Of a DNA stretch of 59,785 bases, positions 19,698 to 56,702 are shown piece after piece. The stretch's first letter is position 1. Each line of letters opens with the position of its first letter. Source of the stretch: Candidatus Krumholzibacteriota bacterium (GTDB taxonomy: Bacteria; Krumholzibacteriota; Krumholzibacteriia; Krumholzibacteriales; Krumholzibacteriaceae); assembly GCA_030609325.1 (NCBI GenBank), contig JAUWCL010000020.1, positions 1-59,785 of the forward strand. Direction: 5' to 3'. The position numbers were made by a program, and so were the translations under genes. Below the pieces are notes generated by a model. That model worked only from the letters and a program-made list of their open reading frames with translations. It had not been told where the DNA came from and ran no database searches.

Positions 19698-22600
19698 TTG
19701 AGAAGAGTCCATGCGAGATCCACGCACCGGTGGATTCTATATACATCGTTTATGACAGCTGTCGTCATGGCGGCGGCCGCGGCAGTTCCGATGGATGAAG
19801 CCATTGCGTCCGGCCCGGGGGCGAAGGTCCTCCGTTCGGACGGTTCCTCCGTCACGTTCGAGATAACCGTACCGCCGCCGCGCATCGAGCGCGGCGGCGA
19901 CGGCGCCCGTGTCGTCCTTCGCGGATACGGCACATTCTCTCCTCCGGGAGCGCCGATGCTTCCCGGCAGGACCTTTCATGTCGCCGTACCGGCGGACGGC
20001 GATCCTTCCGTTTCCTGGACCGTGACGGACAGTGAAGACCTGGGCCGTCTTCCCCTCGGCCGGGTCATGGCCGAGAGGTTCGTCAGGTACGGGGAGGACG
20101 GGATCCCCGTCACCGAGATGTATCTTCCCGAAGATCCCTGGGACGGCAGGATACCGACGGTAGCGGTCATTCCAGCACGCCCGGCGATGATGGGAAGGCA
20201 GAGGGTCCTGCCCGTACGGGTGAGTCCGCTCACGGGGCGGGACGGTAGTTACAGCCTGGCGAGAAGGATCACCGTCACGGTCTCGTTCGGGCCTTCCTCC
20301 GGCGTCCTGCCGGACCGGTCCGGACAGGCCGCCGGAACGGTCCTCTCGGGCGCCTGGAAGAGGATGTACGAGAGAGTCCTCGTAAACCCGTCCGACACGG
20401 AACGCCTCATATCTCCCGTAAAGAGCAGGCCGGCCGCACGCTCGTCCCTGCAGGCGGGGAGGAGGCTCAAGATAAAGATACCCGAAACGGGAGTCTACTC
20501 CGTACGCGCCGACTCTCTTATAGCCTCGGGCCTTTCGCTGTTCCTGTCGAACAACGGGTTTGCGCTGAGGAAACTCTACTTCGACGAGACCGGGCCGGAC
20601 CTGGTGAGGGAAGTCGACATCCCTTACCGGGTGATCAAGGGCTCGGAGTCGGCGGCCGGTATCTTCGGGGGGGATGACCTGCTCGTCTTCTTTGCCAGGG
20701 GAGTCAAGGACGACGTTGATGCGGGGGATACGACGGCCGTCTTCAACAGCTACAACGTCATCTGGCTTTTCGAGGACGAAGCCGGCGCCGTCATGCCTGA
20801 CGGGCCGGGATTCCCATCGGGAGCGGGGTCGCCGCAGTCGAGCTTCGTTCACGCCGAGAAGGTGCGGAAGGATACGTGGTACCACAAATACGTCAGGGTG
20901 GGGATGAAGGACTTTAACTGCGTGGCCGGCCCCGAGAGGGACGAGGTCGCCGTTCCCTTCACCGTTCACGACGCCGAGCCGGGAAGCGTCTTCTCGGTCC
21001 ACATCAGGATCCTCGGATACGAGAAGAGCAATCCGAGCCAGGACCTCGACTTCTTCATCCGTAATTCCGGCGGCACCCGGGCGATAGGAAGCGGTTTCAT
21101 CTCCTCGACAGAGGAGAAGGTTTTCAATTTCGACATGATCCAGGTCAACAGGCTCGACGAGGGGGCGAACAAGATCGTCGTGACGAGCAGGGACGAGACA
21201 TACGGTTTCCTCGTAAACGATATGGTGGTGAAATACTCGCGGACGACGGCCGTGTGGGACGACTACCTCGATTTCACGGTCAGTCAGGACCTCGGGGAAA
21301 AGAGGGTCGAGATATCGGGATTCAGCGGGCAGGACGGTTATCTCGTCGAGCTGACCGATCCCGATGCGCCGGTGTTCCACGACATCCCTGCCGATTCGTT
21401 CAGGGCCGACGACGGCTCGTACACACTCTCCCTGACGGTTCCCGCGGCGACAGACAGGCGTTTCGTAGCGCTGGGCCGCGGCGCGGGAATGCATATCAGC
21501 AACATATGGATCGATTGCGAGGTGAGCGCGGCGAACGATCTGCGCTCGAGCCCCGGTCCGTACAACACGCTCGTAATAGCGCACTCGGACTTCCTCCCGC
21601 CCGTCAGCGGCTACCTCGCGCAGTACATATCGTGGAGGGAAGCACAGGGCTACAGGATCCTCGGGGCCGATGTCAGGGACGTCTACGATGAGTTCAACGG
21701 CGGGCTCGTCTCGGCCGACGCGATCCGCAGATTCATCAGGTACGGCGTCGAGAACTGGGGCGTGGAGTTCGTGCTGCTGGTCGGCGACGCGAGCGAGGAT
21801 CACCGGAGGATCTTCATAGGCGATCCGCCGGAGACCCGCGGTTCGCCTCCCGATTATGTTCCGGCCTACACGTACAGCGTCAATGTGATCGGCAGAGACA
21901 AGGACGAGGTAGTGGCATCCGACAAGTATTACGCCTTCCTCGACGAGGCGCCGCCCTCCGGGTACGGCTATGCCGCCCCCGGAGCCGAGGCGCCGCCCTC
22001 CGGCGGCTCCGACCCTCTGTATCTGCCGGCGGCCGCCTACCCTGACGTGTTCGTTGGCAGGCTGCCCGTCGGGCGCGAGCTCGAGCTCAGGGCCATGCTC
22101 ACGAAGATGTACAGGTTCGAGGAGCCTGCCATCTCCGATTCGTGGCGCAGGTCGATGGTCCTCTTCTCCGACGACGCATGGTCGGGATACCTGTCGTCTT
22201 ACGCGTACCACTCGATCGAGCACCATTTCGAGTACGGCATGGACTCGGTCGCTGTAAAAATTGACGAGGCCCTCCCCGGAGGCTTCGACGTCCACAGGCT
22301 CCATCTCTCCAAGTGGACGGACGGGGTCCACGACGACCTGCAGGGAGGCACCCGGGTCCTCAGCGAGGCGACCGACTCGACGCGCAGGTATTTCACGCCG
22401 TACCTCAACAGAAAGCTCAACGACGGGTGTCTCTTCTTCTCCTTCCAGGGGCATGCATCGAGGTCGAATTTCACGACCGAGGCCGGATTTTCCAACTTCA
22501 ACCAGTACCAGGACGTCGACAGCCTCCGCTACGACCGCAACCACATATTCTTCGGCCTGGGCTGCCATATCAGCGATTTCGCGCTGATGATGGAATATTC

Positions 22601-23861
22601 CCGTTCGGGGCTCGATGGACCGAACGGCGACTGCATCACCGAACAGCTCCTGTTCAAGTCCAGGGCGGGCGCGGTCGGCACGTACGCAAGCACTGGATTC
22701 GAGTACCTTCTCGAGAACAAGTATTTCTGCACGACGATGCACGAAGTGATATTCCAGAGGCCGCCCGTCGATTCGATCCCGCCGGCAAACGAGCAGACGG
22801 GGGCCAGATGGATCCTCGGCGAGGCCTTGACCGCCAGCGAGATCGAGCATCTCGGCACCGCATCCTATGCTTACGGGCAGCTCTACAGGTACGTGCTCCT
22901 CGGCGATCCGATGCTTCGTATAGAACCGGGTCCGCCGCTGATGACCCTGTCGGCCGACTGGGGAAACGGGATGCAGGAGCTCCCCGCCGATACACTGCGC
23001 TCCCGGAACAGGACTAATACCTGCAGCCTCATGTTCAGCGCGAGCGATGTCGTTGCGCTCGGAAATATCGAATTCCTGGTGGCCGGCGAGGACAGGACGG
23101 GCGATCTGACGGTCACCCCCACGGTGGACGAGGGCCTGGACTTCGCGAGGGGCTATGAGGCAAGGGTGGACTATACGGTAAGCCTCGACGAGCAGTCGCT
23201 CGTGTTCAGGATATATTCTCCCGGCGGCCTGGAAACGGGCGTGAAAGAGCTCCACACCGCCGTTTCGATGAGGCTGTACAACGGCTCGCGGGAGATACCG
23301 CCCGGCGGAGAATCCCCGGCCGAAGGCGAGTTCCTCCTCGACATGCAGTTCCCCGTGTGGCTCGATGCGGCTCCGCAGATCATGCTCGACGACCACGATC
23401 TCGATGGCGCGGCGGTGCAGGCGCCCGATCCGCAGGATTCGACGGGCTGGGAGGCAAGGTTCACCCGGACCCTGGCGGCGGGCGATCATTTCCTGACAGT
23501 CGCCGTCGGGGAGTACAAGACCGACTATCCTTTCACAGTGGGAGGAAGCGGTCTGGTCATGGACGCCTTCAACTTCCCCAACCCGTTCGACGAGGGCACG
23601 AATATCTGCTACTCGCTCAACATCGATGCTGACGCCGGGATCATCAGGATCTACAACGTCAGCGGTATCCTGATCAGGGAGATCGTGATCCCGCGCAGCC
23701 TGCTCGGTGCTGCGCCGCCGGGCGCTCCCAATGCCGTCTGGTGGGACGGCAGGGACATGGTAGGCGACAGGGTCGCGAACGGGACGTATATCTACATGAT
23801 CTATGTGGAGAAGGATGGCGGCACCGTAAGCTTCACGGGCAAGGCCGTCCGCCTCGAGTAG
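19698..23861 (+). CDS. Gingipain-family (C25) cysteine peptidase with FlgD-like C-terminal domain
   Basis: A 1387-residue exported protein. A signal peptide (~residues 10-37) and a propeptide-like beta region lead to the C25 caspase-like fold (~residues 620-1080): DYVPAYTYSVNVIG, PDVFVGRLPVGRELEL, then the catalytic His919 in FQGHAS and Cys956 in GLGCHISDF. The C-terminal ~95 residues (FNFPNPFDEGTNICYSL, IRIYNVSGILIREI, WWDGRDMVGDRVANGTYIY) form the FlgD-like/type IX-type beta domain. The start is the TTG at 19698, with AAGGAGAG upstream. The N-terminal part recalls PorU (KIKIPETGVYSVRADSLIASG), so it may be a sortase of a type IX-like system or simply a secreted protease. Confidence 0.85.
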   Translation: MRRVHARSTHRWILYTSFMTAVVMAAAAAVPMDEAIASGPGAKVLRSDGSSVTFEITVPPPRIERGGDGARVVLRGYGTFSPPGAPMLPGRTFHVAVPADGDPSVSWTVTDSEDLGRLPLGRVMAERFVRYGEDGIPVTEMYLPEDPWDGRIPTVAVIPARPAMMGRQRVLPVRVSPLTGRDGSYSLARRITVTVSFGPSSGVLPDRSGQAAGTVLSGAWKRMYERVLVNPSDTERLISPVKSRPAARSSLQAGRRLKIKIPETGVYSVRADSLIASGLSLFLSNNGFALRKLYFDETGPDLVREVDIPYRVIKGSESAAGIFGGDDLLVFFARGVKDDVDAGDTTAVFNSYNVIWLFEDEAGAVMPDGPGFPSGAGSPQSSFVHAEKVRKDTWYHKYVRVGMKDFNCVAGPERDEVAVPFTVHDAEPGSVFSVHIRILGYEKSNPSQDLDFFIRNSGGTRAIGSGFISSTEEKVFNFDMIQVNRLDEGANKIVVTSRDETYGFLVNDMVVKYSRTTAVWDDYLDFTVSQDLGEKRVEISGFSGQDGYLVELTDPDAPVFHDIPADSFRADDGSYTLSLTVPAATDRRFVALGRGAGMHISNIWIDCEVSAANDLRSSPGPYNTLVIAHSDFLPPVSGYLAQYISWREAQGYRILGADVRDVYDEFNGGLVSADAIRRFIRYGVENWGVEFVLLVGDASEDHRRIFIGDPPETRGSPPDYVPAYTYSVNVIGRDKDEVVASDKYYAFLDEAPPSGYGYAAPGAEAPPSGGSDPLYLPAAAYPDVFVGRLPVGRELELRAMLTKMYRFEEPAISDSWRRSMVLFSDDAWSGYLSSYAYHSIEHHFEYGMDSVAVKIDEALPGGFDVHRLHLSKWTDGVHDDLQGGTRVLSEATDSTRRYFTPYLNRKLNDGCLFFSFQGHASRSNFTTEAGFSNFNQYQDVDSLRYDRNHIFFGLGCHISDFALMMEYSRSGLDGPNGDCITEQLLFKSRAGAVGTYASTGFEYLLENKYFCTTMHEVIFQRPPVDSIPPANEQTGARWILGEALTASEIEHLGTASYAYGQLYRYVLLGDPMLRIEPGPPLMTLSADWGNGMQELPADTLRSRNRTNTCSLMFSASDVVALGNIEFLVAGEDRTGDLTVTPTVDEGLDFARGYEARVDYTVSLDEQSLVFRIYSPGGLETGVKELHTAVSMRLYNGSREIPPGGESPAEGEFLLDMQFPVWLDAAPQIMLDDHDLDGAAVQAPDPQDSTGWEARFTRTLAAGDHFLTVAVGEYKTDYPFTVGGSGLVMDAFNFPNPFDEGTNICYSLNIDADAGIIRIYNVSGILIREIVIPRSLLGAAPPGAPNAVWWDGRDMVGDRVANGTYIYMIYVEKDGGTVSFTGKAVRLE

Positions 23862-37788: not shown

Positions 37789-39000
37789 TTGCGAATCGGA
37801 ATGGTGCTCCAGACGACGATCCCTCCACACGATATCCGGGTGGAAAAGGAAGCGGGGACCCTTATCCGGGAGGGTCACGAAATCCATCTCCTGCTCGAGG
37901 GGGCCGATGGACAGCCCGACGAGGAGACCTGGGAGGGGATGAGGCTGCTGCGCGGCGTGAGGATGAGCGGCGCGAGGAAGAAATTCCACAGGTACACCTT
38001 CAACTTCACATTCCGCGACGGGCTCTGGCGGCGGGCGATCACCGATTTCGTGCGGAACAGGAAGATAGACGTTCTGCATGTCCACGACCTCCCGCTCGTC
38101 GGCGAGGCGGTTCGCGTCGGCAGGGCCGAGGGCATCCCCGTCGTTGCCGATCTTCACGAGAACTTTCCCGGAGGGCTGCAGGTCTGGTACACCAGTTCAT
38201 TGAAAAGGAAGACGATATATAATTTCGGTCGCTGGTCCCGCTATGAGAGGGAGATACTCGGCGAGGTCGATGCCGTCATAGCCGTAGTCGAGGAATCGAA
38301 GAAGCGGCTCGAGGGAATCGGGATACCCGGGGATAAGATATTCGTTGTTTCGAACACCGCCCACAGGAAGGGGGAGGAGTCTCCCGTCGATCCGGTCATA
38401 CTCGAGAAATACCGCGACAGGTTCGTGATCTCGTATGTGGGTAAATTTTCCACCCACAGAGGCCTGGATGTGATCATAAGCGCGATGCCGGAGCTTCGTG
38501 AGAAGGTGCCGGAGATACTTCTGCTGCTGGTCGGCGACAGGAACAAGCCCTATTTGGATTACCTGGTCCGCCTCGTCGACAGGCTCGGATGCGGCGACGT
38601 CGTCGAGATGACCGGCTGGCAGACGTTCGAAAGGATATGGAGCTACATTCACGCGAGCGACGTCTGCCTCGTGCCGCACCAGAGAAATCCGCACACCGAC
38701 ACGACGATACCCCACAAGATATTCCAGTACATGATGCTCGGCAAACCCGTCATCGTCAGCGACTGTCCGCCTCTGGCAAAGGTGATAACAGATTCCGGCG
38801 GCGGGCTTGTATTCAGGCACGACGATCCGTCCGATTTCGCCGCTAAAGTCAGACGGCTCCGGGACGGTGCGGACCTTCGCGCGCAAGTCTCCGAATCGGG
38901 GAGGGCGGCATTTCTCGACAGATACAACTGGGAAAGCACCAGCGGGGAGCTGGTAAGACTGTACGAAAGCATGGACCGCCGAACGGGAGGACCCTTTTGA
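37789..39000 (+). CDS. GT4-family glycosyltransferase
   Basis: A 403-residue GT-B glycosyltransferase. The N-terminal domain begins [20 protein letters not shown] and has [16 protein letters not shown]. The C-terminal domain has [20 protein letters not shown], the nucleotide-site region [20 protein letters not shown] and [12 protein letters not shown]. The start is the TTG at 37789, with GGGAGA upstream. It is the first gene of a cluster with an aminotransferase and another glycosyltransferase, likely for a surface glycan. It overlaps the next gene by 4 bp. Confidence 0.9.
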
Positions 39001-40115
39001 AGGTAAAACTGCTCGATCTGACAGCTCAGTACGTGAAGATACGCAACGAGGTGATGGAGGCGGTAGCCGAGGTCTTCGAGTCGCAGTACTTCATCCTTGG
39101 TCCGAAGGTGGCAGAGCTCGAAAAACGGGTCGCCGAGTATTGCGGCACGAAGGATGCGGTCGGAGTGGCGTCGGGGAGCGATGCTATCCTCCTCTGCCTG
39201 ATGGCCCTCGGGATCGGCACCGGGGACGAGGTCATAACCACTCCGTATACCTTCTTCTCGACCGTCAGCAGCATCACGAGGCTCGGGGCACGTCCCGTCT
39301 TCGCCGACATTGATCCGGAGACGTACAATATCGACCCGTCCGCCGTGACGAATGCAATAACCGACAGGACGAAGGCGATCCTCGTCGTTCATCTCTACGG
39401 GCAGACGGCCGACATGGATCCGATACTCAAGGCTGCCGGGACGAGCGGGATACCCGTTATCGAGGACTCCTGCCAGGCGATAGGTGCGGAGTACAGGGGG
39501 CGCAGGGCGGGCTCGATGGGGCTTGCCGGCTGCTTCTCGTTCTTTCCCTCGAAGAATCTCGGAGGCGCAGGCGACGGCGGCATGATCACGACAGGCGACG
39601 AGGAGCTGGCCGAACATCTGCGCAGGTTGAGAAACCACGGCGGCAGGGAGAGGTACTGCCACGACGAGGTCGGCATCAACAGCCGCCTGGACGCGGTGCA
39701 GGCGGCTGTCCTGCTCGTCAAGCTCCGTTACCTCGACGCGTGGAGCGACGGAAGGATCGGGAACGCAGCCCGATACGACGAGGTGCTGGGCTGTATCGAC
39801 GGTATCGCGACTCCCGTGGTCAGCGAGGAAAACCGCCATATTTACAACCAGTACGTGATACGTGTGCCGCGCAGGGACGAGCTGAGATCCTTCCTGCAGG
39901 ACAGCGATATCGGCTGCGAGATATACTATCCCGTTCCGCTGCATCTTCAGAAATGCTTCTCTTTTCTCGGTGGTGCGGAAGGGGATTGCCCCGAGGCGGA
40001 AAGGGCAGCGCTCGAGACGCTGGCGCTTCCCGTTTTCACCGAGCTGACACCGGAGATGCAGGAGTACGCGGCAGGAAAGATCGCGGAATTCTACCGGCCG
40101 GACGGCTCGGAGTGA
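38997..40115 (+). CDS. DegT/DnrJ/EryC1/StrS sugar aminotransferase
   Basis: A 372-residue PLP enzyme: [20 protein letters not shown], the [20 protein letters not shown] segment, the Asp-containing [16 protein letters not shown], and the PLP lysine in [16 protein letters not shown]. Such enzymes form amino sugars on nucleotide-linked keto-sugars. The start is a TTG overlapping the upstream stop, with GGGAGG ahead. Flanked by two glycosyltransferases, it probably supplies an amino sugar to the same glycan. Confidence 0.92.
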
Positions 40116-40152: not shown

Positions 40153-41292
40153 TTGAAGATCGTCTGCTTTTCCGAGATCCAGTGGCGCTACGTCAGGACG
40201 CGCAAGCAGCAGATCCTGTCGAGATTCCCGCCCGACCGCGAGATCCTCTTCCTTTCTACCGTGGTCAGGGGGAGACGCAGCAATTTCAGGCCGGAAAGAG
40301 ACGGTAATATCGTTCACGCATGCGTGCCCGTCCTCAAGAATTTCCCGCAGAAATGGGCGAGGGCGCTCTTCTCCTTCCCTCCGGCGAGATTTCTCTGGAA
40401 CGCGATGCTCTTCATATGGCTGAGGGTCCTCTTCAGGGCGACCGGTTTCCATCGGAGTGACCGGGTCTTCTACGTTTCGAACGTATATTACGCCCCGATC
40501 CTTCCACTGCTGCCGAGAAGGCTGATGCTCTACGACTGCAACGACGATCCTCTCTCGTTCCCCAACGTGCCGGGCTGGGTCTCCGGCTGTTTCGAGAGGG
40601 TGGCGAGGGATGCAGGCGTCGCGACGGCGGTCAGTGCCGGGCTTGTCGAAAGGCTTAAGGAGGCGGGAGCAGGGGATGTAGTGCTGTTGGGAAACGGCGT
40701 CGATTACGAGATGTTTCAGCGCGCCGCGGCGACCGGCCCTCCGGACGACGTGAAGGATCTCGGGCGGCCGGTGATCGGATACGCCGGCGCCATCGCGCAG
40801 TGGTTCGATTTCGAGCTGGTCGGGACGATCGCGAGGAAATTCCCCGGGGCATCCATCGCCCTGATCGGGCCGGTCTTCAGGGAGGTCGAGGAGCGGGCGC
40901 GGCGGCTGGCGGAGGAGAGGAGGAACGTGGTCTTCCTCGGCGAGAAGAGGTATGATGAGCTCGGCGCGTACCTCTCGTCGATGGACGTCTGCATGATACC
41001 GCTCGAGGCCAACGAGCTCCGGCGCCTGGCCGATCCCAACAAGCTCTACGAATACGCGGCGGTCGGCAGACCGGTCGTCACGATGGCGTACTCCGAGTAT
41101 ATCGCGTCGCTGGACGGCCTTGTATACGTCGCCGGCTCGCAGGGAGAATTCGTCGACAAAATCGAGGAGGCTCTTGGAAAGGGGGCCGACACGGAAGCCC
41201 TGCAGGAATTCGCCCGGGCGAGGAGCTGGCGGAGCCGGGCGGACGAGATGACGAGACTCATCGACGAGGCGATCGAAAGGAAAGGTCAATAA
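40153..41292 (+). CDS. GT4-type glycosyltransferase
   Basis: A 379-residue GT-B glycosyltransferase of the group that includes 'glycosyltransferase family 1/teichuronic acid' types: KIVCFSEIQWRYVRTRKQQI, LYDCNDDPLSFPNVPGW, VVLLGNGVDYEMFQ, IGYAGAIAQWFDFELV, FLGEKRYDELGAYLSSMDVC. The donor-binding acidic motif lies near EANELRRLADPNKLYEYAAV. The start is the TTG at 40153, with CTGGAGG upstream. A lipoprotein-type selenoprotein gene follows 12 bases later in the same direction, so the two probably share a transcript. Confidence 0.88.
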   Translation: MKIVCFSEIQWRYVRTRKQQILSRFPPDREILFLSTVVRGRRSNFRPERDGNIVHACVPVLKNFPQKWARALFSFPPARFLWNAMLFIWLRVLFRATGFHRSDRVFYVSNVYYAPILPLLPRRLMLYDCNDDPLSFPNVPGWVSGCFERVARDAGVATAVSAGLVERLKEAGAGDVVLLGNGVDYEMFQRAAATGPPDDVKDLGRPVIGYAGAIAQWFDFELVGTIARKFPGASIALIGPVFREVEERARRLAEERRNVVFLGEKRYDELGAYLSSMDVCMIPLEANELRRLADPNKLYEYAAVGRPVVTMAYSEYIASLDGLVYVAGSQGEFVDKIEEALGKGADTEALQEFARARSWRSRADEMTRLIDEAIERKGQ

Positions 41293-41304: not shown

Positions 41305-42531
41305 ATGAGAAATATCATTCTGCTTGCGGCGGCCGCGGTATTCCTGGCGGGCATCTTTCCGTCCTGTTCCGGCGAGACCGGCACTGCCGGCACGTCCGAC
41401 CTCTATCTCCTCGAGGAACTGGAGACGGCCCGTTTGGTCGAGAACGCGGACAAGAGGCTCGAAAGGCTCGAGATCTTCACGGCCAACAACTCTGCGCATC
41501 CCTACCGCTTGCTGGCCTACGAGGATATTCTCGAGACGATGGCGGTGGACAAGGGTGACGTGGAGGGAGCGCTAGCGTATTTCGACGGATTGATAAAGAA
41601 GGAGGAAGATCCGGCGATCCGCGGGAAGCTTCTCTTCGCGAAGTTCGAGTTCTTCCGGGAGGCCGACTCGCTCCGGTCCGTCGCCCTCGCGAAGGAGGTC
41701 CTCGAAAGCGGCGAGAAGGATTTCCGGTTGCTGATGTACATGGCCTACTACCTGATGGGTGTGGAGGGGCAGGAAGAGATCGTCGACGCAATCTTCGTGA
41801 GGCTGATCGAGGTGTCGGAAGACGAGCACAGGAAGAATCACGCCCGCACGATATATGCCGAGTTCCTCGAGGCCGACGGCTGTGAGGAAAAGGCGGCAGA
41901 GGTGCTTGAGCTGGCCTCGTCGTATACATTCGCCAACGCGCCGATCGGGCGCAGGCTGTGGGAGGAAGACAGGCGGGAGGAGGCGCTGGAGAGGTACATC
42001 TTCCTGGCGGCGGGAGCTCCCGGGTACAGGAAGTACATCAAGCTCGATAGTCTCTATTCGGTCGTCTATCCGTCGTCAAATGACCTCGAATCGAAGATCG
42101 GGGTCCTCAGGATAGTATACGGCCCGCAGATCCCGGACAGGGAATTCGTCGACATCAGGGGAATGCGTCACTCGATCTCCGGGTACCGCGGCTCGAAGGT
42201 GGTAATCACGGCCTTCAGTCCCACCTGACCTTCCTGTATTGCGGAGTTGCCGCAATTGGAAGAATTGAAGAAGAAGGAAGACACCCTCGGATTCAAGCTC
42301 CTGCTGATTGACGGGAAGGGGATGCTCGAGAAGACACGCGGGATCATGGATGACAAGGGAGTCACCATCCCGGTGCTTCTGGACAGCCGTCAGTACTCGC
42401 GCGAGGTGCTCGGCACGATGTACACTCCGACGACCTACGTGATCGATGCGGAGGGTCTGATAAGGTGCCGGCTTGTCGGGCATTCGGAGGATTTCAACGG
42501 GATCGTCGCAGACGTTCTGAGCCGGATATAA
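41305..42531 (+). CDS. Predicted selenoprotein: TlpA/AhpC-type thiol-disulfide protein with Sec308
   Basis: Reading through the in-frame TGA at 42226 gives one 408-residue protein. It begins with an export signal (ILLAAAAVFLAGIFPSC, possibly a lipoprotein), continues with a helical, TPR-like region (~residues 30-270), and ends in a redoxin domain: ISGYRGSKVVITAFSPT-U-PSCIAELPQLEEL, then TPTTYVIDAEGLI. The TGA takes the place of the first Cys of the family's W-C-x-x-C motif (U-P-S-C), and the frame stays open for 100 codons with continuous homology. A SECIS-like hairpin begins 9 nt later. Without readthrough, the protein would end at residue 307 just before its active site. Whether the host makes selenocysteine cannot be seen here; a nonsense mutation is the alternative. 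Confidence 0.8.
42226..42256 (+). promoter_or_regulatory. UGA codon and bacterial SECIS-like hairpin
   Basis: After TGA (42226-42228), a perfect 7-bp stem ATTGCGG (42238-42244) pairs with CCGCAAT (42250-42256) around the loop AGTTG. The loop holds a G-U and starts 17 nt after the TGA, inside the spacing typical of bacterial SECIS elements. It also encodes I-A-E-L-P-Q, so the structure coexists with conserved coding sequence. Confidence 0.75.
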
Positions 42532-42576: not shown

Positions 42577-44178
42577 TCAGACCCCCGCTCCTGCAGGCTC
42601 GCCTGCCGTAAGGGCGATCTTCGCCTCTGATATCTGATCCCGCAGCTCGGGATCTATCTCCATGGCTGCCGCCCTCTCCAGCACGGCTGCCGCATCCTTG
42701 ATGTTTCCCAGCTCCGAATCGAGGATCTTCGCCAGGGCGATCGACGCCTTGGCGGTCACTGTCGTAACTGCATTGCAGGTGATGATGAACCTGTAGATGT
42801 CAACCGCTTCGGGATGGTGGCCCTGCGAGGAGAGCCATTTCGCCGACCTCAGCAGCAGCTGCGGGTTGACGTCGACCGAGGCGGGGGACCTGTCCTCGAT
42901 TATCTCGAGGGCCAGCCTTCCCGCGTCCTCGTTGCGCGATTTGATCAGCAGGTTCTTCAGCACCTTCTCGTTGATCTCGCAGCACTCATCGCTCATATCA
43001 TGCTCGCTGTAGAGGACCGCTATGTCCTGCTGGAGGCTCAGGTCGTCGGGGCGCTCCCCCACGAGGGTCGTGAACAGGAGCTTCGCGCGCTCGACGTTCC
43101 CCGAGGCGAGGAGCTCGCACGCCTCGTCGAATCTCGGATCCTTCAGCACGCCGCCTTCGATCCGCGCCTTCCGGACCATCGGATCGATCCATTTAGATTC
43201 AAGTCCCGTGGCCTTGAATACGAGTGCCGTGATCACTCCGCCCATGTACCCGGCGATATGCGCTGCGTAGGCCACTCCCGAGCCGCCGACGAAATTGGAA
43301 AGCTCCTTCAGGACGATCTGCTGTATGAACCAGAAGGGGAGGAATACGAATGCCGGCAGGTAGAACGTGCCCCAGAACGGCCTGATGATAATGATGAAAA
43401 GATAGAAGAACTTTATCTTCGTCATGAAGTGCCTGATCGTGAACGCCCCCATCGCCGCCGCAATCGCCCCGGACGCTCCGATCAGCGGGACGGACGATCC
43501 GGATTGGGAAAGGCAGTGCGCCAGTCCAGCGAACGCCCCGCCGAGAAGGTAGAATGCGAGAAAGGTCTTCCTGCCCCAGCTGTCCTCGAGAAGGCATCCT
43601 ACCACCCACAGGAAGAGCATGTTTCCGAGGAGGTGCCAGATGTCGCCGTGCAGGAACATGTGCGTGATGAACGTGTGTACCCTGCTCATCCTGCTCGGGA
43701 CGAGGCCGAGGGCGTAATTGACGTGACCGTCGAGGACCTTCGTCTCCCGCTTCTTCAGCCTCTTCCATTCGGCGAAGTCGCTCGTTTCCTCGCTGAATTC
43801 CGGATAGAACGATTCGTCCCTCTCCGCCAGTTCCCGGCCGTACGATTCGATCTTGTCGAAAGCGTTGTATGAGCCGCCCATCGCCTCGATGAGGCCTATT
43901 CCGAGGTCGTAGTAACCCTCGGCCTGCTCCATCATCTCGATGCCGTGCGCCGCCTCGGGACTTATATAACCCGGCAATACGTCATCGCTGCTCTTGTCCA
44001 TTATGTACAGCCGTACCTGCTGGGCGTACAGGTCCCTGTGGACCTCGAACATTTCCTCCCCGGTCTGTCCGGACATCGTGGAGGCGAGGATGTGTACGAT
44101 TATGCATGCGGCGATAAGGCCAATAGTGACTTTGGGTTTAAGGGCCAGGGCGGCCTTGGTACCTATGGGGATTATCAT
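42577..44178 (-). CDS. Rhomboid intramembrane serine protease with helical-repeat C-terminus
   Basis: A 533-residue membrane protein. The rhomboid core shows HMFLHGDIWHLLGNMLFLWV, the catalytic Ser in GASGAIAAAMG and the catalytic His in YAAHIAGYMGGV. A first transmembrane segment (VTIGLIAACIIVHILAS) and a ~110-residue periplasmic loop precede the core, as in rhomboids with large loops. About 200 C-terminal residues are helical repeats of TPR type (ELLASGNVERAKLLFTTLVG). I start at the ATG at 44178, with AGAGGT upstream; the longer frame has no signal. It would cleave membrane-protein substrates; which ones is unknown. Confidence 0.9.
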   Translation of the reverse strand: MIIPIGTKAALALKPKVTIGLIAACIIVHILASTMSGQTGEEMFEVHRDLYAQQVRLYIMDKSSDDVLPGYISPEAAHGIEMMEQAEGYYDLGIGLIEAMGGSYNAFDKIESYGRELAERDESFYPEFSEETSDFAEWKRLKKRETKVLDGHVNYALGLVPSRMSRVHTFITHMFLHGDIWHLLGNMLFLWVVGCLLEDSWGRKTFLAFYLLGGAFAGLAHCLSQSGSSVPLIGASGAIAAAMGAFTIRHFMTKIKFFYLFIIIIRPFWGTFYLPAFVFLPFWFIQQIVLKELSNFVGGSGVAYAAHIAGYMGGVITALVFKATGLESKWIDPMVRKARIEGGVLKDPRFDEACELLASGNVERAKLLFTTLVGERPDDLSLQQDIAVLYSEHDMSDECCEINEKVLKNLLIKSRNEDAGRLALEIIEDRSPASVDVNPQLLLRSAKWLSSQGHHPEAVDIYRFIITCNAVTTVTAKASIALAKILDSELGNIKDAAAVLERAAAMEIDPELRDQISEAKIALTAGEPAGAGV

Positions 44179-44437
44179 GAGCGGACCTCTCTTCCGGCCG
44201 CCTTTCCTGCCGGACAGGCGTATATTGCAATATGAGACTGCCCGCAGGGCAGCCCGGTAAGATACCGCCGGACCGGTTGCATAACCGTTTGCAATTAAAT
44301 ATCTTGAGTTGCTGCCCCTGGCCCGGCCGACCGTTTCGAGGGGTAATCTGCAAGAAGGATTCCAGACGGACACCAGACGGAATATCGGTGGTTCCTGTTG
44401 CGATACAACCAGTTTGCTGTACTGAAGGAATCAGGAG

Positions 44438-49690: not shown

Positions 49691-49719
49691 TTGCCCCCAG
49701 AAATAATAGATGATATACT
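49691..49719 (+). promoter_or_regulatory. Promoter of the M28 peptidase gene
   Basis: TTGCCC (49691-49696), a 17-bp spacer and TATACT (49714-49719) with an extended -10 TG (TGATATACT). Its start point (~49726) lies downstream of the first in-frame ATG (49710), which supports the later TTG start. Confidence 0.6.
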
Positions 49720-49754
49720 ATAACAAAAGGTCTCCTTTGGAAAGGAATTTCCGG

Positions 49755-51956
49755 TTGAAACGCTTCATACCGAGGCAGCAGCAGGCCGGAACCCGCATCG
49801 ATGCGGCGCCGGCGCCTTATCTCGTTCTGATCCTTCTTTTCACCCTTCAGATTACGCTGCCGGGCAGCCGCGGGGCATCGGCGCAGGGATGCGGCCTGTG
49901 CGCGCTGGCGGGAAGGATCGATCGCGAGGAGCTGCTTGCAACCGTACGGGAGCTGAGCGGAGCCGACCCGGTGACAGTCGGCGGCGTCAGTCAGATCATA
50001 TCGACGAGGTCGACCCTGCTGCCGGAAAAGCTTGTCGCAAGGGACTATCTTCTCGAGCGCGTGGCGGGCCTGGGCTATAACGCGGTGCGGCAGGCTCATC
50101 CTCTCAGCGTTTACTATCCCGACCTGCTGGCCGCGGAGGTCTCGGTGACGGGCGAAAGCCTGTGGACAGGTTCGGACGAGGGCGAGGTCTTCCTGATGAC
50201 AGCCGCGGGCGGCTGGGACGACACGCATGTCATATCGAGGATAGACGCGAGGATCTACGATCTCGCACTCGACCATTTCGGCACGCTCTGGGCGGCATGC
50301 AAGACGAAGGGAGCGGGGTACGGGGAGCTGCATTGCTCCGCTGACGGGGGCGAGACCTGGCAGGCGAAGGTGATCGGCAACACGACGAACAACGTCCTCG
50401 CGCTCAGCTCGATCGCCTTTTCTTCGCCTGAAGCCGCAATCGTATCCGGTTCGTACGGGACGGCGTTCAGGATGCAGTATTACGGGGGTGACTGGTACAT
50501 CCACTATTTCGACCCGGCCGAATTCTACTACAGGCAGCTCAAAGGCTCGGGCTCTTCCGGGCCGATGCACGTCTGGATCGTGTCGACGGGCGGGACGATC
50601 TTCGAGAGCGAGGATCTCGGCGCGACGTGGACCGACACGACCCCGTGGCCGAACAACCTCTGGGACATCGATTTCTGCGGCCCCGACAGGGGGATCGCCG
50701 TGGGAGAGGACCTGACGTATTACACCGGCGACGGAGGCAATACGTGGAACATGGTCGCCGTTAACGCTTCCCTCTACACGGTGACGATGCTCGACACATT
50801 ACGGGCGGTCGCGTCCGGTGTGTACGGGCATATCTGGACCACCGACGACGGGGGCGTCACATGGTCGGAGCTCGCGCATGACTGCACCCGCGACGAGGAT
50901 ATCAGGGAAACGGTCCTTTCTCCCTCTGACACGATCTGGGCCGTCGGAAGGAACATGCCTCTTAGGCTGGAGCTCGGAGGGACGGAGGTCGTCTGCCGGC
51001 AATGGGAGCTGGCCGACACGATCTGGGGCGAGAACATCGTTTTCGGCAGCGAGGGGCAGGCGCTGCCCGGCGAGAAAGTCGTCGTCTGCGCGCACTACGA
51101 CTCGAGAAACTGGCAGGATCCCTACTGCGCGCCCGGCGCCGACGACAATGCCAGCGGGTGCGCCGGCGTGCTCGAGATCGCGAGGGTATTCGCGGTCGCG
51201 GCATTCGAGAGATCTATCGAGTACATACTCTTCGACGGTGAGGAGATCGGACTGATCGGCAGCAGGTATTACGTTGCAGAGCGGGACACCGACCTTACGA
51301 TAGATGCCGTAATCAATCTCGACATGATCGGCAGGGATTACGGGGGAGGGGTCACATTGCAGATCGCCGGCAGGGACGATCCCCTCGATTCGGCGCTGGC
51401 GGCGCTGATCGCCGACATGGCCGGCTTTCTCCAGCTCGATCTCGACTGCAACTACCTGTACGGCTCGTCGCCGACGAGCGACCACAAGGCGTTCTGGGAG
51501 ATAGAGGGCGTCCCGGCGATCCTGCTGATAGAGAACGAGTACCGCAACAATCCGCACTATCATGACCACTCGGACATCGCCGACTATATCGATTTCGATT
51601 TCATGACAGATGTAGTAAAAGCCGCCGCCGGCTCCGCCGCCGAGCTGGCGGGGCTGATACGCACGGATCCGCTCCCCTCGACCGTCGTGCTCCACCAGAA
51701 CTTTCCGAACCCTCTGTTCAACCACACGAGGATTCGATTCGAGCTGCCGTCGCGCCTGCCTGTCGACCTGACCCTGTTCGATCTGGCCGGCAGGAAGGTA
51801 GTGGTGATGATAAGGGATACACTCGACGGGGGACGGCATGAATTCGTCTGGGACGGGAGGGGCCCCTCGGGCGAGGACATCGCCAGCGGGGTCTATTTCC
51901 TCCGGCTGCAGGCCGACGGCATGGACCGCGTTCGCAAGGTCGTCATCGTGCGCTGA
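49755..51956 (+). CDS. M28-family aminopeptidase with inserted beta-propeller and FlgD-like tail
   Basis: A 733-residue exported zinc peptidase. After a signal peptide (PYLVLILLFTLQITLPG) comes the short N-terminal M28 part, then BNR/YCF48-like propeller blades (~residues 110-410: SADGGETWQAKVIG, FESEDLGATWTDTTPW, TTDDGGVTWSELAHD). The M28 catalytic domain follows: VVVCAHYDSRNWQDPYCAPG, ADDNASGCAGVLEI, FDGEEIGLIGS, INLDMIG. The last ~90 residues are a FlgD-like/type IX-type domain (NFPNPLFNHTRIRFELP, WDGRGPSGEDIASGVYFLRL). The start is the TTG at 49755, with GGAAAGG upstream. Its targeting is likely the same as that of the C25 peptidase. Confidence 0.88.
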   Translation: MKRFIPRQQQAGTRIDAAPAPYLVLILLFTLQITLPGSRGASAQGCGLCALAGRIDREELLATVRELSGADPVTVGGVSQIISTRSTLLPEKLVARDYLLERVAGLGYNAVRQAHPLSVYYPDLLAAEVSVTGESLWTGSDEGEVFLMTAAGGWDDTHVISRIDARIYDLALDHFGTLWAACKTKGAGYGELHCSADGGETWQAKVIGNTTNNVLALSSIAFSSPEAAIVSGSYGTAFRMQYYGGDWYIHYFDPAEFYYRQLKGSGSSGPMHVWIVSTGGTIFESEDLGATWTDTTPWPNNLWDIDFCGPDRGIAVGEDLTYYTGDGGNTWNMVAVNASLYTVTMLDTLRAVASGVYGHIWTTDDGGVTWSELAHDCTRDEDIRETVLSPSDTIWAVGRNMPLRLELGGTEVVCRQWELADTIWGENIVFGSEGQALPGEKVVVCAHYDSRNWQDPYCAPGADDNASGCAGVLEIARVFAVAAFERSIEYILFDGEEIGLIGSRYYVAERDTDLTIDAVINLDMIGRDYGGGVTLQIAGRDDPLDSALAALIADMAGFLQLDLDCNYLYGSSPTSDHKAFWEIEGVPAILLIENEYRNNPHYHDHSDIADYIDFDFMTDVVKAAAGSAAELAGLIRTDPLPSTVVLHQNFPNPLFNHTRIRFELPSRLPVDLTLFDLAGRKVVVMIRDTLDGGRHEFVWDGRGPSGEDIASGVYFLRLQADGMDRVRKVVIVR

Positions 51957-54981: not shown

Positions 54982-55052
54982 TCGCTTCCTGATGACGCGC
55001 AGAAGAGATCGACACGGGCCGGATGGCCCCTAACAGTCAAGGAGACCCGACC

Positions 55053-56702
55053 ATGAACATGTTCTGCTATCAGTGCCAGGAAACGGCTGGCAACACGGGC
55101 TGCACGAAAGTGGGCGTCTGCGGCAAGGCGCCGGAAACCTCCGTTCTCCAGGATCTGCTCGTCTTCGTCTCGAAGGGAGTATCGATTCCGGGTTCGAGAA
55201 CTGTAGAGGGAAGCGATGATTTCCTCGAGGCGGGAAGATTTCTGACGAGAGCGCTGTTTGCCACGATAACGAACAGCAACTTCGACGACAATCGTTTTGT
55301 CGAGCTCGTCGATGAAGGTCTTTCACTGCGCGACAGTCTCATGGCCAGGTACGGCGGGGAACTCGAGGGCGATCTGCACGAATCGGTCAGCTGGACCCCC
55401 GGCGAAAACGAAGATCTCACGGCAAAGGGACTGACAGTCGGCGTTCTCTCGACCGGGAACGAGGATGTGCGCTCCCTCAGGGAACTCGTCATATACGGGC
55501 TGAAGGGCATAGCCGCCTACACCCACCACGCGCATGTTCTCGGTTACGAGGACGACGTCGTGTATTCGTTCATCATGAAGGCACTGACAGATACTACCCG
55601 GGACATCTCCACAGACGAGCTTACAGCTCTCGTGCTCGAGACCGGCAAATGCGCCGTCGATGCAATGGCCGTTCTCGACAAGGCCAATACGGAGACCTAT
55701 GGAAACCCGGAGATCTCCACGGTCAAGACCGGCGTGCGCGGCAATCCCGGCATACTGGTTTCCGGCCACGATCTTAAGGATATCGAGGAACTCCTCGAGC
55801 AGACCGCCGGGACCGGTGTCGATATCTACACTCACGGCGAGATGCTCCCCGCACACTACTATCCTGCATTCAAGAAGTACGACCACCTCGCCGGAAACTA
55901 CGGCGGCGCCTGGTACAAGCAGGGCAGCGAGTTCGGGTCGTTCAACGGCCCGATCCTCATGACGACCAACTGCATCACCCCGGTAAAGGACTCGTACAGG
56001 GACAGGATCTTCACTGCCGGCATGGCGGGATACCCCGGCGTCAGGCACATTCCTGACCGTCCGGAAGGCGGGAAGAAGGATTTCTCGGAAATCATCGAGA
56101 TCGCGAGGAACTCCGCCGCTCCCGAGCAGATCGAGGACGGGCGGATCGTCGGCGGATTCGCGCACGCCCAGGTCGCCTCACTGGCCGGCGACATTGTCGA
56201 AGCGGTCAAGTCCGGGGCGATCAAGAAGTTCGTCGTCATGGCCGGATGCGACGGGAGGCAGAAGAAACGTTCCTATTTCACTGAGGTCGCAGAAAACCTC
56301 CCGAAAGACACCGTCATCCTCACAGCCGGATGCGCAAAGTATCGCTACAACAAGCTCGATCTCGGAGACATCGGCGGTATCCCGAGAGTCCTCGATGCGG
56401 GGCAGTGCAACGATTCGTACTCGCTCGCCCTGACAGCTCTGAAGCTGAAAGAGGCTTTCGAACTCGAGGACGTAAACGATCTTCCCCTGGCGTTCGACAT
56501 CGCCTGGTATGAGCAGAAGGCAGTCACCGTGCTGCTCGCGCTGCTCTACCTCGGATTCAAGAACATCAGACTCGGCCCGACGCTGCCGGCGTTCCTATCG
56601 CCGAACGTGGTCAATGTCCTCGTCGAGAAGTTCGGCATCGCCCAGACGGACGACGTCGACGAGGATATCGCGTCGATGATGGGATCGACACCTGCCGGCT
56701 GA
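55053..56702 (+). CDS. hcp: Hybrid-cluster protein (hydroxylamine/NO reductase)
   Basis: A 549-residue Hcp. The N-terminal cysteine cluster [20 protein letters not shown] binds a [4Fe-4S] cluster (C-x2-C-x8-C-x5-C). The C-terminal half supplies the hybrid Fe-S-O cluster: [28 protein letters not shown] and [13 protein letters not shown]. Hcp reduces nitric oxide or hydroxylamine and guards against nitrosative stress in anaerobes. The ATG at 55053 has AAGGAGA 8 bases upstream; an earlier ATG at 55023 would add ten non-conserved residues. It is controlled by the divergent Crp/Fnr regulator. Confidence 0.96.

What the first reader, a model, noticed from the sequence alone, without database searches (positions are those of the whole stretch)
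41305..42531. Predicted selenoprotein: in-frame TGA at the redox Cys position of a TlpA/AhpC-type lipoprotein, with an adjacent SECIS-like hairpin
Seen: one frame stays open from 41305 to 42531 except for a TGA at 42226. Aligned by eye with the TlpA redoxin motif (W-C-P-P-C-x-A-E-L-P), the sequence is T-U-P-S-C-I-A-E-L-P, so the TGA replaces exactly the first redox Cys. The second Cys is kept, and homology runs on past it (P-T-T-Y-V-I-D). A perfect 7-bp stem with a 5-nt loop containing G-U starts 9 nt after the TGA. Known: bacterial selenocysteine insertion needs a UGA with a stem-loop whose apical loop lies ~16-37 nt downstream; redox U-x-x-C motifs are the most common selenoprotein sites. 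Inference: a real selenoprotein fused to a TPR-like N-terminal region, possibly lipid-anchored, ending a glycan gene cluster.
Basis: partly seen in the sequence, partly recalled or inferred. Interest (0 to 1): 0.92.

Follow-up and report, generated by a model that had tools for sequence, protein, structure and literature searches.

The report
Selenium-containing TlpA-type redox lipoprotein
An uncultured Krumholzibacteriota bacterium almost certainly reads a 'stop' signal inside one gene as selenocysteine, giving an exported, probably lipid-anchored redox protein whose selenium site and RNA signal are kept in all 20 relatives that could be checked; it is a convincing new branch of a known class of selenoproteins, not a new kind of biology.

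Summary
The finding is confirmed and its interpretation supported. The frame 41305-42531 holds one in-frame TGA (42226-42228) at the first redox-Cys position of a ResA/TlpA-like thioredoxin domain (T-U-P-S-C). The genome carries selA, selB, selC and selD. All 20 orthologs covering the site (two families, 38-88% identical) have TGA there, never Cys. The hairpin meets all four published bacterial SECIS constraints; its codons are the most synonymously constrained stretch of the gene, and its stem shows strong compensatory change across the class. TGA is an ordinary stop in neighbouring genes, so decoding must be SECIS-specific. The N-terminal half is a TPR-type helical repeat behind a lipoprotein-like signal. 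Two genomes lack the gene cleanly, flanks intact; no Cys version or remnant was seen. Synteny with glycan genes is strong but each part can be lost without the other, so a glycan role is not shown. Two further UxxC groups in the class share the same GGAGUU SECIS core and spacing. UxxC proteins of the AhpC-TSA/redoxin fold are a catalogued selenoprotein kind; new here are the TPR-lipoprotein subfamily, its Sec-only conservation and the shared SECIS. Function (extracytoplasmic thiol-disulfide reductase or isomerase) is inferred.

The parts
41305..42531 (+). selenoprotein gene: TPR-repeat lipoprotein with C-terminal Sec-containing TlpA/ResA-like domain, 408 aa read through TGA
41305..41367 (+). 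signal peptide with lipobox-like F-P-S-C (Cys21); orthologs have LSGC, LPGC, VTGC, AAGC and similar
41392..42009 (+). TPR-type helical repeat region (residues about 30-235)
   Evidence: AlphaFold2 pLDDT about 81-92 over most of it, falling to 64-73 near residues 211-230; TPR folds dominate the Foldseek hits; weak Pfam TPR hits in up to 6 of 16 orthologs
42124..42483 (+). AhpC-TSA/Redoxin (ResA/TlpA-like) domain, residues 274-393
42226..42228 (+). TGA codon read as selenocysteine 308 (U of the UxxC motif T-U-P-S-C)
42238..42256 (+). bacterial SECIS hairpin: 7-bp stem 42238-42244/42250-42256, loop AGUUG 42245-42249
   Evidence: constraints from PMC13188914
42230..42262 (+). possible lower helix 42230-42234/42258-42262, differing between relatives
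40153..41292 (+). glycosyltransferase group 1, next upstream, 12-nt gap
38997..40115 (+). DegT/DnrJ/EryC1/StrS sugar aminotransferase
37789..39000 (+). glycosyltransferase group 1
42577..44373 (-). rhomboid-domain protein, convergent neighbour

Best explanation
The gene encodes a true selenoprotein. SelB with Sec-tRNA-Sec binds the SECIS hairpin, whose loop starts after a 16-nt spacer behind UGA-308, and inserts selenocysteine there instead of terminating. The product is exported, probably anchored by lipid at Cys21, and carries a TPR scaffold joined to a ResA/TlpA-like thioredoxin domain with the redox pair Sec308-Cys311. Inferred function: a reductase or isomerase that acts outside the cytoplasm, in which Sec308 attacks disulfides (or oxidised thiols) of substrates bound by the TPR part and Cys311 resolves the selenyl-sulfide. 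Supported by computation: TGA and SECIS conservation, machinery, domain family, signal sequence. Inferred: actual Sec insertion, localisation, direction of the redox reaction and substrate. The confidence given is for the selenoprotein claim; for the reductase/isomerase function it is about 0.6.
For: selD, selB, selA over their curated cut-offs; tRNA-Sec 71.5 bits and ARAGORN tRNA-SeC anticodon tca. All 20 orthologs covering the site, in two families at 38-88% identity, have exactly one TGA at the same column. Codons 312-317 (the hairpin): 0.94 codon identity among pairs with the same residue against a 0.41 background, top of 88 six-codon windows. Stem covariation over 35 distinct sequences of three redoxin groups: 91% paired, 36 doubly changed cells against 9.9 shuffled, 0/500; slid controls at most 59% paired. 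Downstream of the TGA dN/dS is 0.22 between two species, so that part is translated. selB in 77 of 80 class genomes at E<=1e-50, 73 over the cut-off. TGA also ends neighbouring genes, so it is not globally reassigned.
Against: No protein-level evidence. The relatives appear to be mostly draft, multi-contig assemblies. The window's own lipobox (FPSC) is atypical, and one relative of the wider group (L047) lacks an obvious lipobox. The C-terminal domain was poorly modelled in the AlphaFold run, whose alignment held only three sequences (pLDDT below 50), so its fold rests on sequence profiles.
Confidence: 0.95

Rival explanations
1. Ordinary termination: the product is a 307-aa TPR protein and the rest is a pseudogene, sequencing error or a separate small ORF (TTG start at 42247).
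For: TGA is a normal stop for neighbouring genes in this window; a 94-aa ORF from a TTG at 42247 exists.
Against: The same TGA in 20 other genomes; the redoxin domain spans the TGA; purifying selection downstream; synonymous constraint and covariation exactly at the hairpin; full Sec machinery. A start at 42247 would remove the redox motif.
Confidence: 0.02
2. TGA is read as another amino acid (Trp, Gly or Cys) by a changed code or programmed read-through.
For: Such codes exist in other lineages (general knowledge); nothing specific to this case.
Against: Of 20 genes checked in the window, nine end in TGA; residue 308 matches the redox Cys of ResA/TlpA, the position where Sec replaces Cys; SECIS and sel genes present.
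Confidence: 0.02
3. A selenoprotein, but with a function bound to the upstream glycan operon (GT-DegT-GT), e.g. protecting or maturing its extracytoplasmic enzymes.
For: Gene order GT-DegT-GT-SEL is conserved across much of the order, with a 12-nt gap here.
Against: In L060/L061 the neighbouring GTs are absent while DegT and SEL stay; in L054 SEL sits beside the methyltransferase gene with no DegT/GT between; L113 keeps DegT and GT without SEL and L112 keeps DegT without SEL.
Confidence: 0.2
4. A selenoprotein whose Sec domain acts as an extracytoplasmic peroxidase (peroxiredoxin-like), not a disulfide reductase or isomerase.
For: The domain is in the AhpC-TSA Pfam family, and selenol sites favour peroxide chemistry (general knowledge).
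Against: Best profile matches are ResA/TlpA/DsbE-type oxidoreductases with a CxxC pair at this position; the resolving Cys311 is invariant, as in thioredoxin-type UxxC rather than TxxU peroxiredoxins (motif table in PMC13188914).
Confidence: 0.15

Closest known systems
Prx-like thiol:disulfide oxidoreductase selenoproteins (PF00578, UxxC/UxxU; PMC13188914 Table 1, PMC1794560)
   Same: AhpC-TSA-family domain with Sec in the first position of UxxC; SECIS directly downstream as in bacterial selenoprotein genes
   Different: here a TPR lipoprotein half precedes it and no Cys ortholog was found; the literature table gives domain and motif only, so the architecture of its members was not compared
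Redoxin family selenoprotein (PF08534, UxxC; PMC13188914 Table 1)
   Same: Redoxin hit over the same residues and the same UxxC motif
   Different: no direct comparison with the cited example was possible
ResA-like WAxxUGC motif-containing protein (NCBIfam NF041054) and UGC-containing TlpA
   Same: ResA-like domain aligns at E 4.9e-10
   Different: far below its cut-off (39 vs 300 bits); motif U-P-S-C/U-P-P-C, not UGC; TPR half at the N-terminus
ResA / TlpA / DsbE (CcmG) extracytoplasmic thioredoxins
   Same: same domain family; U308 falls on the first Cys of WCPPC
   Different: Sec instead of Cys; TPR scaffold; lipoprotein-type signal
TPR proteins of the periplasm or membrane (BamD, LbcA, LapB, MamA)
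   Same: TPR-type helical superhelix among the Foldseek hits
   Different: to general knowledge none of these is fused to a redoxin; matches are to the general fold, with low TM-scores

Membership tests
bacterial selenoprotein | in-frame UGA inside one conserved reading frame | tested here: met
bacterial selenoprotein | selA, selB, selC, selD in the genome | tested here: met
bacterial selenoprotein | SECIS: loop 3-9 nt, upper stem 4-16 bp, G in first two loop positions, 16-37 nt from UGA to loop, MFE <= -7.5 | tested here: met
   loop 5 nt (AGUUG), stem 7 bp, G at position 2, 16 nt (the lower limit), -16 kcal/mol (constraints)
bacterial selenoprotein | conservation of UGA and covariation of the SECIS in relatives | tested here: met
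bacterial selenoprotein | Cys-containing homologs aligned at the Sec position | tested here: met
   only at domain level: ResA/TlpA Cys proteins align with Cys at or next to this position; no full-length Cys ortholog seen
bacterial selenoprotein | Sec demonstrated in the protein | not testable with these tools
   needs 75Se labelling or mass spectrometry
Prx-like thiol:disulfide oxidoreductase (PF00578 UxxC) | PF00578 domain above gathering score with UxxC | tested here: met
   45.8 bits vs 26; U308-x-x-C311, Cys311 invariant
TPR protein | curated TPR models above cut-off in this protein | tested here: not met
   no TPR hit in the window protein; weak hits in up to 6 of 16 orthologs
TPR protein | helical-hairpin superhelix fold | tested here: met
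   predicted model only:
bacterial lipoprotein | signal peptide with lipobox [LVI][ASTVI][GAS]C | tested here: inconclusive
   window FPSC is atypical; several orthologs fit better (e.g. VTGC, LSGC, AAGC); no signal-peptide predictor at hand
ResA-like WAxxUGC (NF041054) | score above cut-off, UGC motif | tested here: not met
   39.2 vs 300 bits; motif is UPSC

The most novel reading that the evidence does not exclude
A lineage of extracytoplasmic TPR-TlpA lipoproteins that exists only in Sec form runs through much of Krumholzibacteriota. Together with further redoxin groups it is read through one shared SECIS core (stem-GGAGUU starting 17 nt after the first base of UGA), so SelB specificity for these genes is fixed on one loop, and the ortholog group is lost outright rather than reverting to Cys.
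Probability: 0.4. Interest if true: 0.55.

Novelty: new member of a known kind. Interest (0 to 1): 0.42.

Why it matters
It adds a well-supported selenoprotein subfamily in an uncultured phylum for which the searched open-access library held no selenoprotein report. Automatic gene callers would likely truncate it at codon 307. Clean presence/absence with no Cys intermediate, while selD in the same family occurs in both Sec and Cys forms, is a natural case for asking why some redox sites tolerate Sec-to-Cys change and others do not. The shared GGAGUU core gives a testable SelB recognition element for the phylum.

Tried and rejected
The selD gene, whose element is spaced differently, is missed by that model, so the search does not bound the selenoproteome. 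Only one of the four AhpC-TSA proteins of the genome has a TGA. A plain TGA-N16-GG pattern was uninformative. The search for related loci by single protein reached only two loci. Full-length Cys orthologs were sought in the 80 class/phylum genomes held and not found; the Cys hits examined are TlpA-domain proteins of other architectures. One origin of Sec for the three UxxC groups could not be settled: groups A and B join at 92/86, C lies on a long branch. The glycan-operon role was considered and lowered. Homologs outside the phylum could not be searched further (cap on genome contigs).

Full report
Observation. The frame 41305-42531 is open except for TGA at 42226-42228. Read through, the protein has 408 residues with U308. 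Pfam AhpC-TSA (45.8 bits, cut-off 26) and Redoxin (40.1 bits, cut-off 26.6) cover residues 274-393, across the TGA. A profile of 16 orthologs finds ResA/TlpA/DsbE structures (best 3kcm, 1.3e-18), with residue 308 on the first Cys of WCPPC. An open frame alone proves little: 15 TGAs in the window have comparably long open flanks. TGA ends nine of 20 genes checked in the window, so it is not reassigned wholesale.

Machinery. The window's genome (2.63 Mb, 95% complete) has selD (365.9 bits), selB (351.1) and selA (499.8), all over their curated cut-offs, and a tRNA-Sec of 71.5 bits (gathering score 47) that ARAGORN also calls tRNA-SeC (tca). selB is found in 77 of 80 genomes of the class at E<=1e-50, in 73 of them over the family cut-off. 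An 88% identical relative is titled Candidatus Krumholzibacteriota (L051), which names the phylum of the window's close kin.

Conservation. Twenty orthologs besides the window cover the site, in two families of the order, at 38-88% identity. Every one has a single TGA at the same column and a Cys three codons on; none has Cys in place of Sec. Between the window and its closest relative dN/dS is 0.34 before and 0.22 after the TGA, so the downstream part is translated and selected.

SECIS. The hairpin (stem 42238-42244/42250-42256, loop AGUUG) folds with its flanks at -16 kcal/mol, z -3.95. It meets the four constraints given in PMC13188914, the 16-nt spacing being at the lower limit. Codons 312-317, which form the hairpin, keep identical codons in 94% of pairs with the same residue, against 41% elsewhere in the gene, the highest of 88 windows. 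One ortholog (L039) has T-A changed to C-G in the stem through a synonymous change on one side and Q-to-R on the other. Aligned without gaps with two other UxxC redoxin groups of the class, 35 distinct sequences pair in 91% of cells with 36 doubly changed cells, reached by 0 of 500 shuffles; slid controls pair at most 59%. Much of that covariation separates the three groups, so it holds fewer independent events than cells. GGAG is invariant and GGAGUU nearly so, always starting 17 nt after the first base of TGA.

The rest of the protein. The full-length orthologs begin with a hydrophobic signal ending in a lipobox-like Cys; the window's FPSC is atypical. Residues about 30-235 are modelled as helical hairpins with pLDDT mostly 81-92, and Foldseek returns mainly TPR proteins. 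Pfam finds only weak TPR hits, in up to 6 of 16 orthologs. The redoxin half was not modelled reliably in that shallow run.

Neighbourhood. The order GT-DegT-GT-SEL, then convergent rhomboid, endonuclease V and a beta-CASP metallo-hydrolase, recurs across the order. The parts come apart: L060/L061 have DegT then SEL without these GTs, and L054 has SEL with neither. L113 keeps DegT and GT, but GT and rhomboid lie about 60 nt apart with no SEL; L112 keeps DegT and has lost both SEL and rhomboid. I therefore treat the glycan genes as neighbours, not as proven partners. Where SEL is missing, I saw no Cys version and no remnant.

Evolution. In a tree of the redoxin domain, this group (A), a second group with helical N-terminal halves (B) and a third of long multidomain proteins (C) are each one clade; A and B join at 92/86, C is on a long branch. 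A member of B (G005) matches the profile of A over positions 31-389, so the two-part architecture is shared at least there. selD contrasts: in the same family some copies have Sec (SCSG-U-ASKL) and others Cys (GLGCACKL); these differ enough along the sequence that they may be two paralogous types rather than direct conversions.

Mechanism. Supported by computation: a Sec codon with a selected SECIS in a ResA/TlpA-like domain, in genomes with the full machinery. Inferred: Sec308 is the attacking nucleophile, Cys311 resolves, the TPR part binds clients or partners, and the protein works outside the cytoplasm on a lipid anchor. The direction (reductase, isomerase or peroxidase) cannot be told from sequence.

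Known or new. UxxC proteins of PF00578 and PF08534 are listed selenoprotein families (PMC13188914, PMC9312934, PMC1794560). By domain and motif this protein belongs there, so I file it as a new member of a known kind. What I did not find described is the TPR-lipoprotein subfamily, its Sec-only conservation, and the shared GGAGUU element; the library searched holds only open-licence papers, so earlier description elsewhere cannot be excluded.

Noticed in passing
L001 (selD, G000:C1:14639-15565): selD of this genome is itself a TGA gene (SCSG-U-ASKLSPTEL) with a GGAGTTG element about 20 nt after the TGA, kept in most other TGA copies of the family; other family genomes carry a Cys-type selD (GLGCACKLRPQDL), and G023/G024 hold both a TGA copy and a Cys copy.
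   Followed up: partly
L099-L105 (family f6 of the class): Long proteins (about 680-790 aa in most) with a TGA in F-A/S-N-W/L-U-P-V-C-G-P-E-F/L-S-D, most ending in a PNPFNP...-type C-terminal sorting-like domain, share the same SECIS core: probably another UxxC selenoprotein group, possibly secreted.
   Followed up: partly
L043-L047, L096-L098: A second group of UxxC redoxins with helical N-terminal halves (e.g. FFPT-U-PGC, WFPT-U-GGC) in other families of the class, with the same SECIS spacing.
   Followed up: partly
window 19698-23858 and 49710-51953: Peptidase C25 (gingipain-type) and M28 peptidase proteins with FlgD_ig-like C-terminal ends, suggesting a secretion/sorting system for such domains.
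   Followed up: no
L112, L113: Clean loss of the selenoprotein gene between conserved neighbours in two genomes that still have selB.
   Followed up: yes
window 55023-56699: Prismane/CO dehydrogenase-family protein (hybrid cluster type), pointing to an anaerobic or redox-active lifestyle.
   Followed up: no
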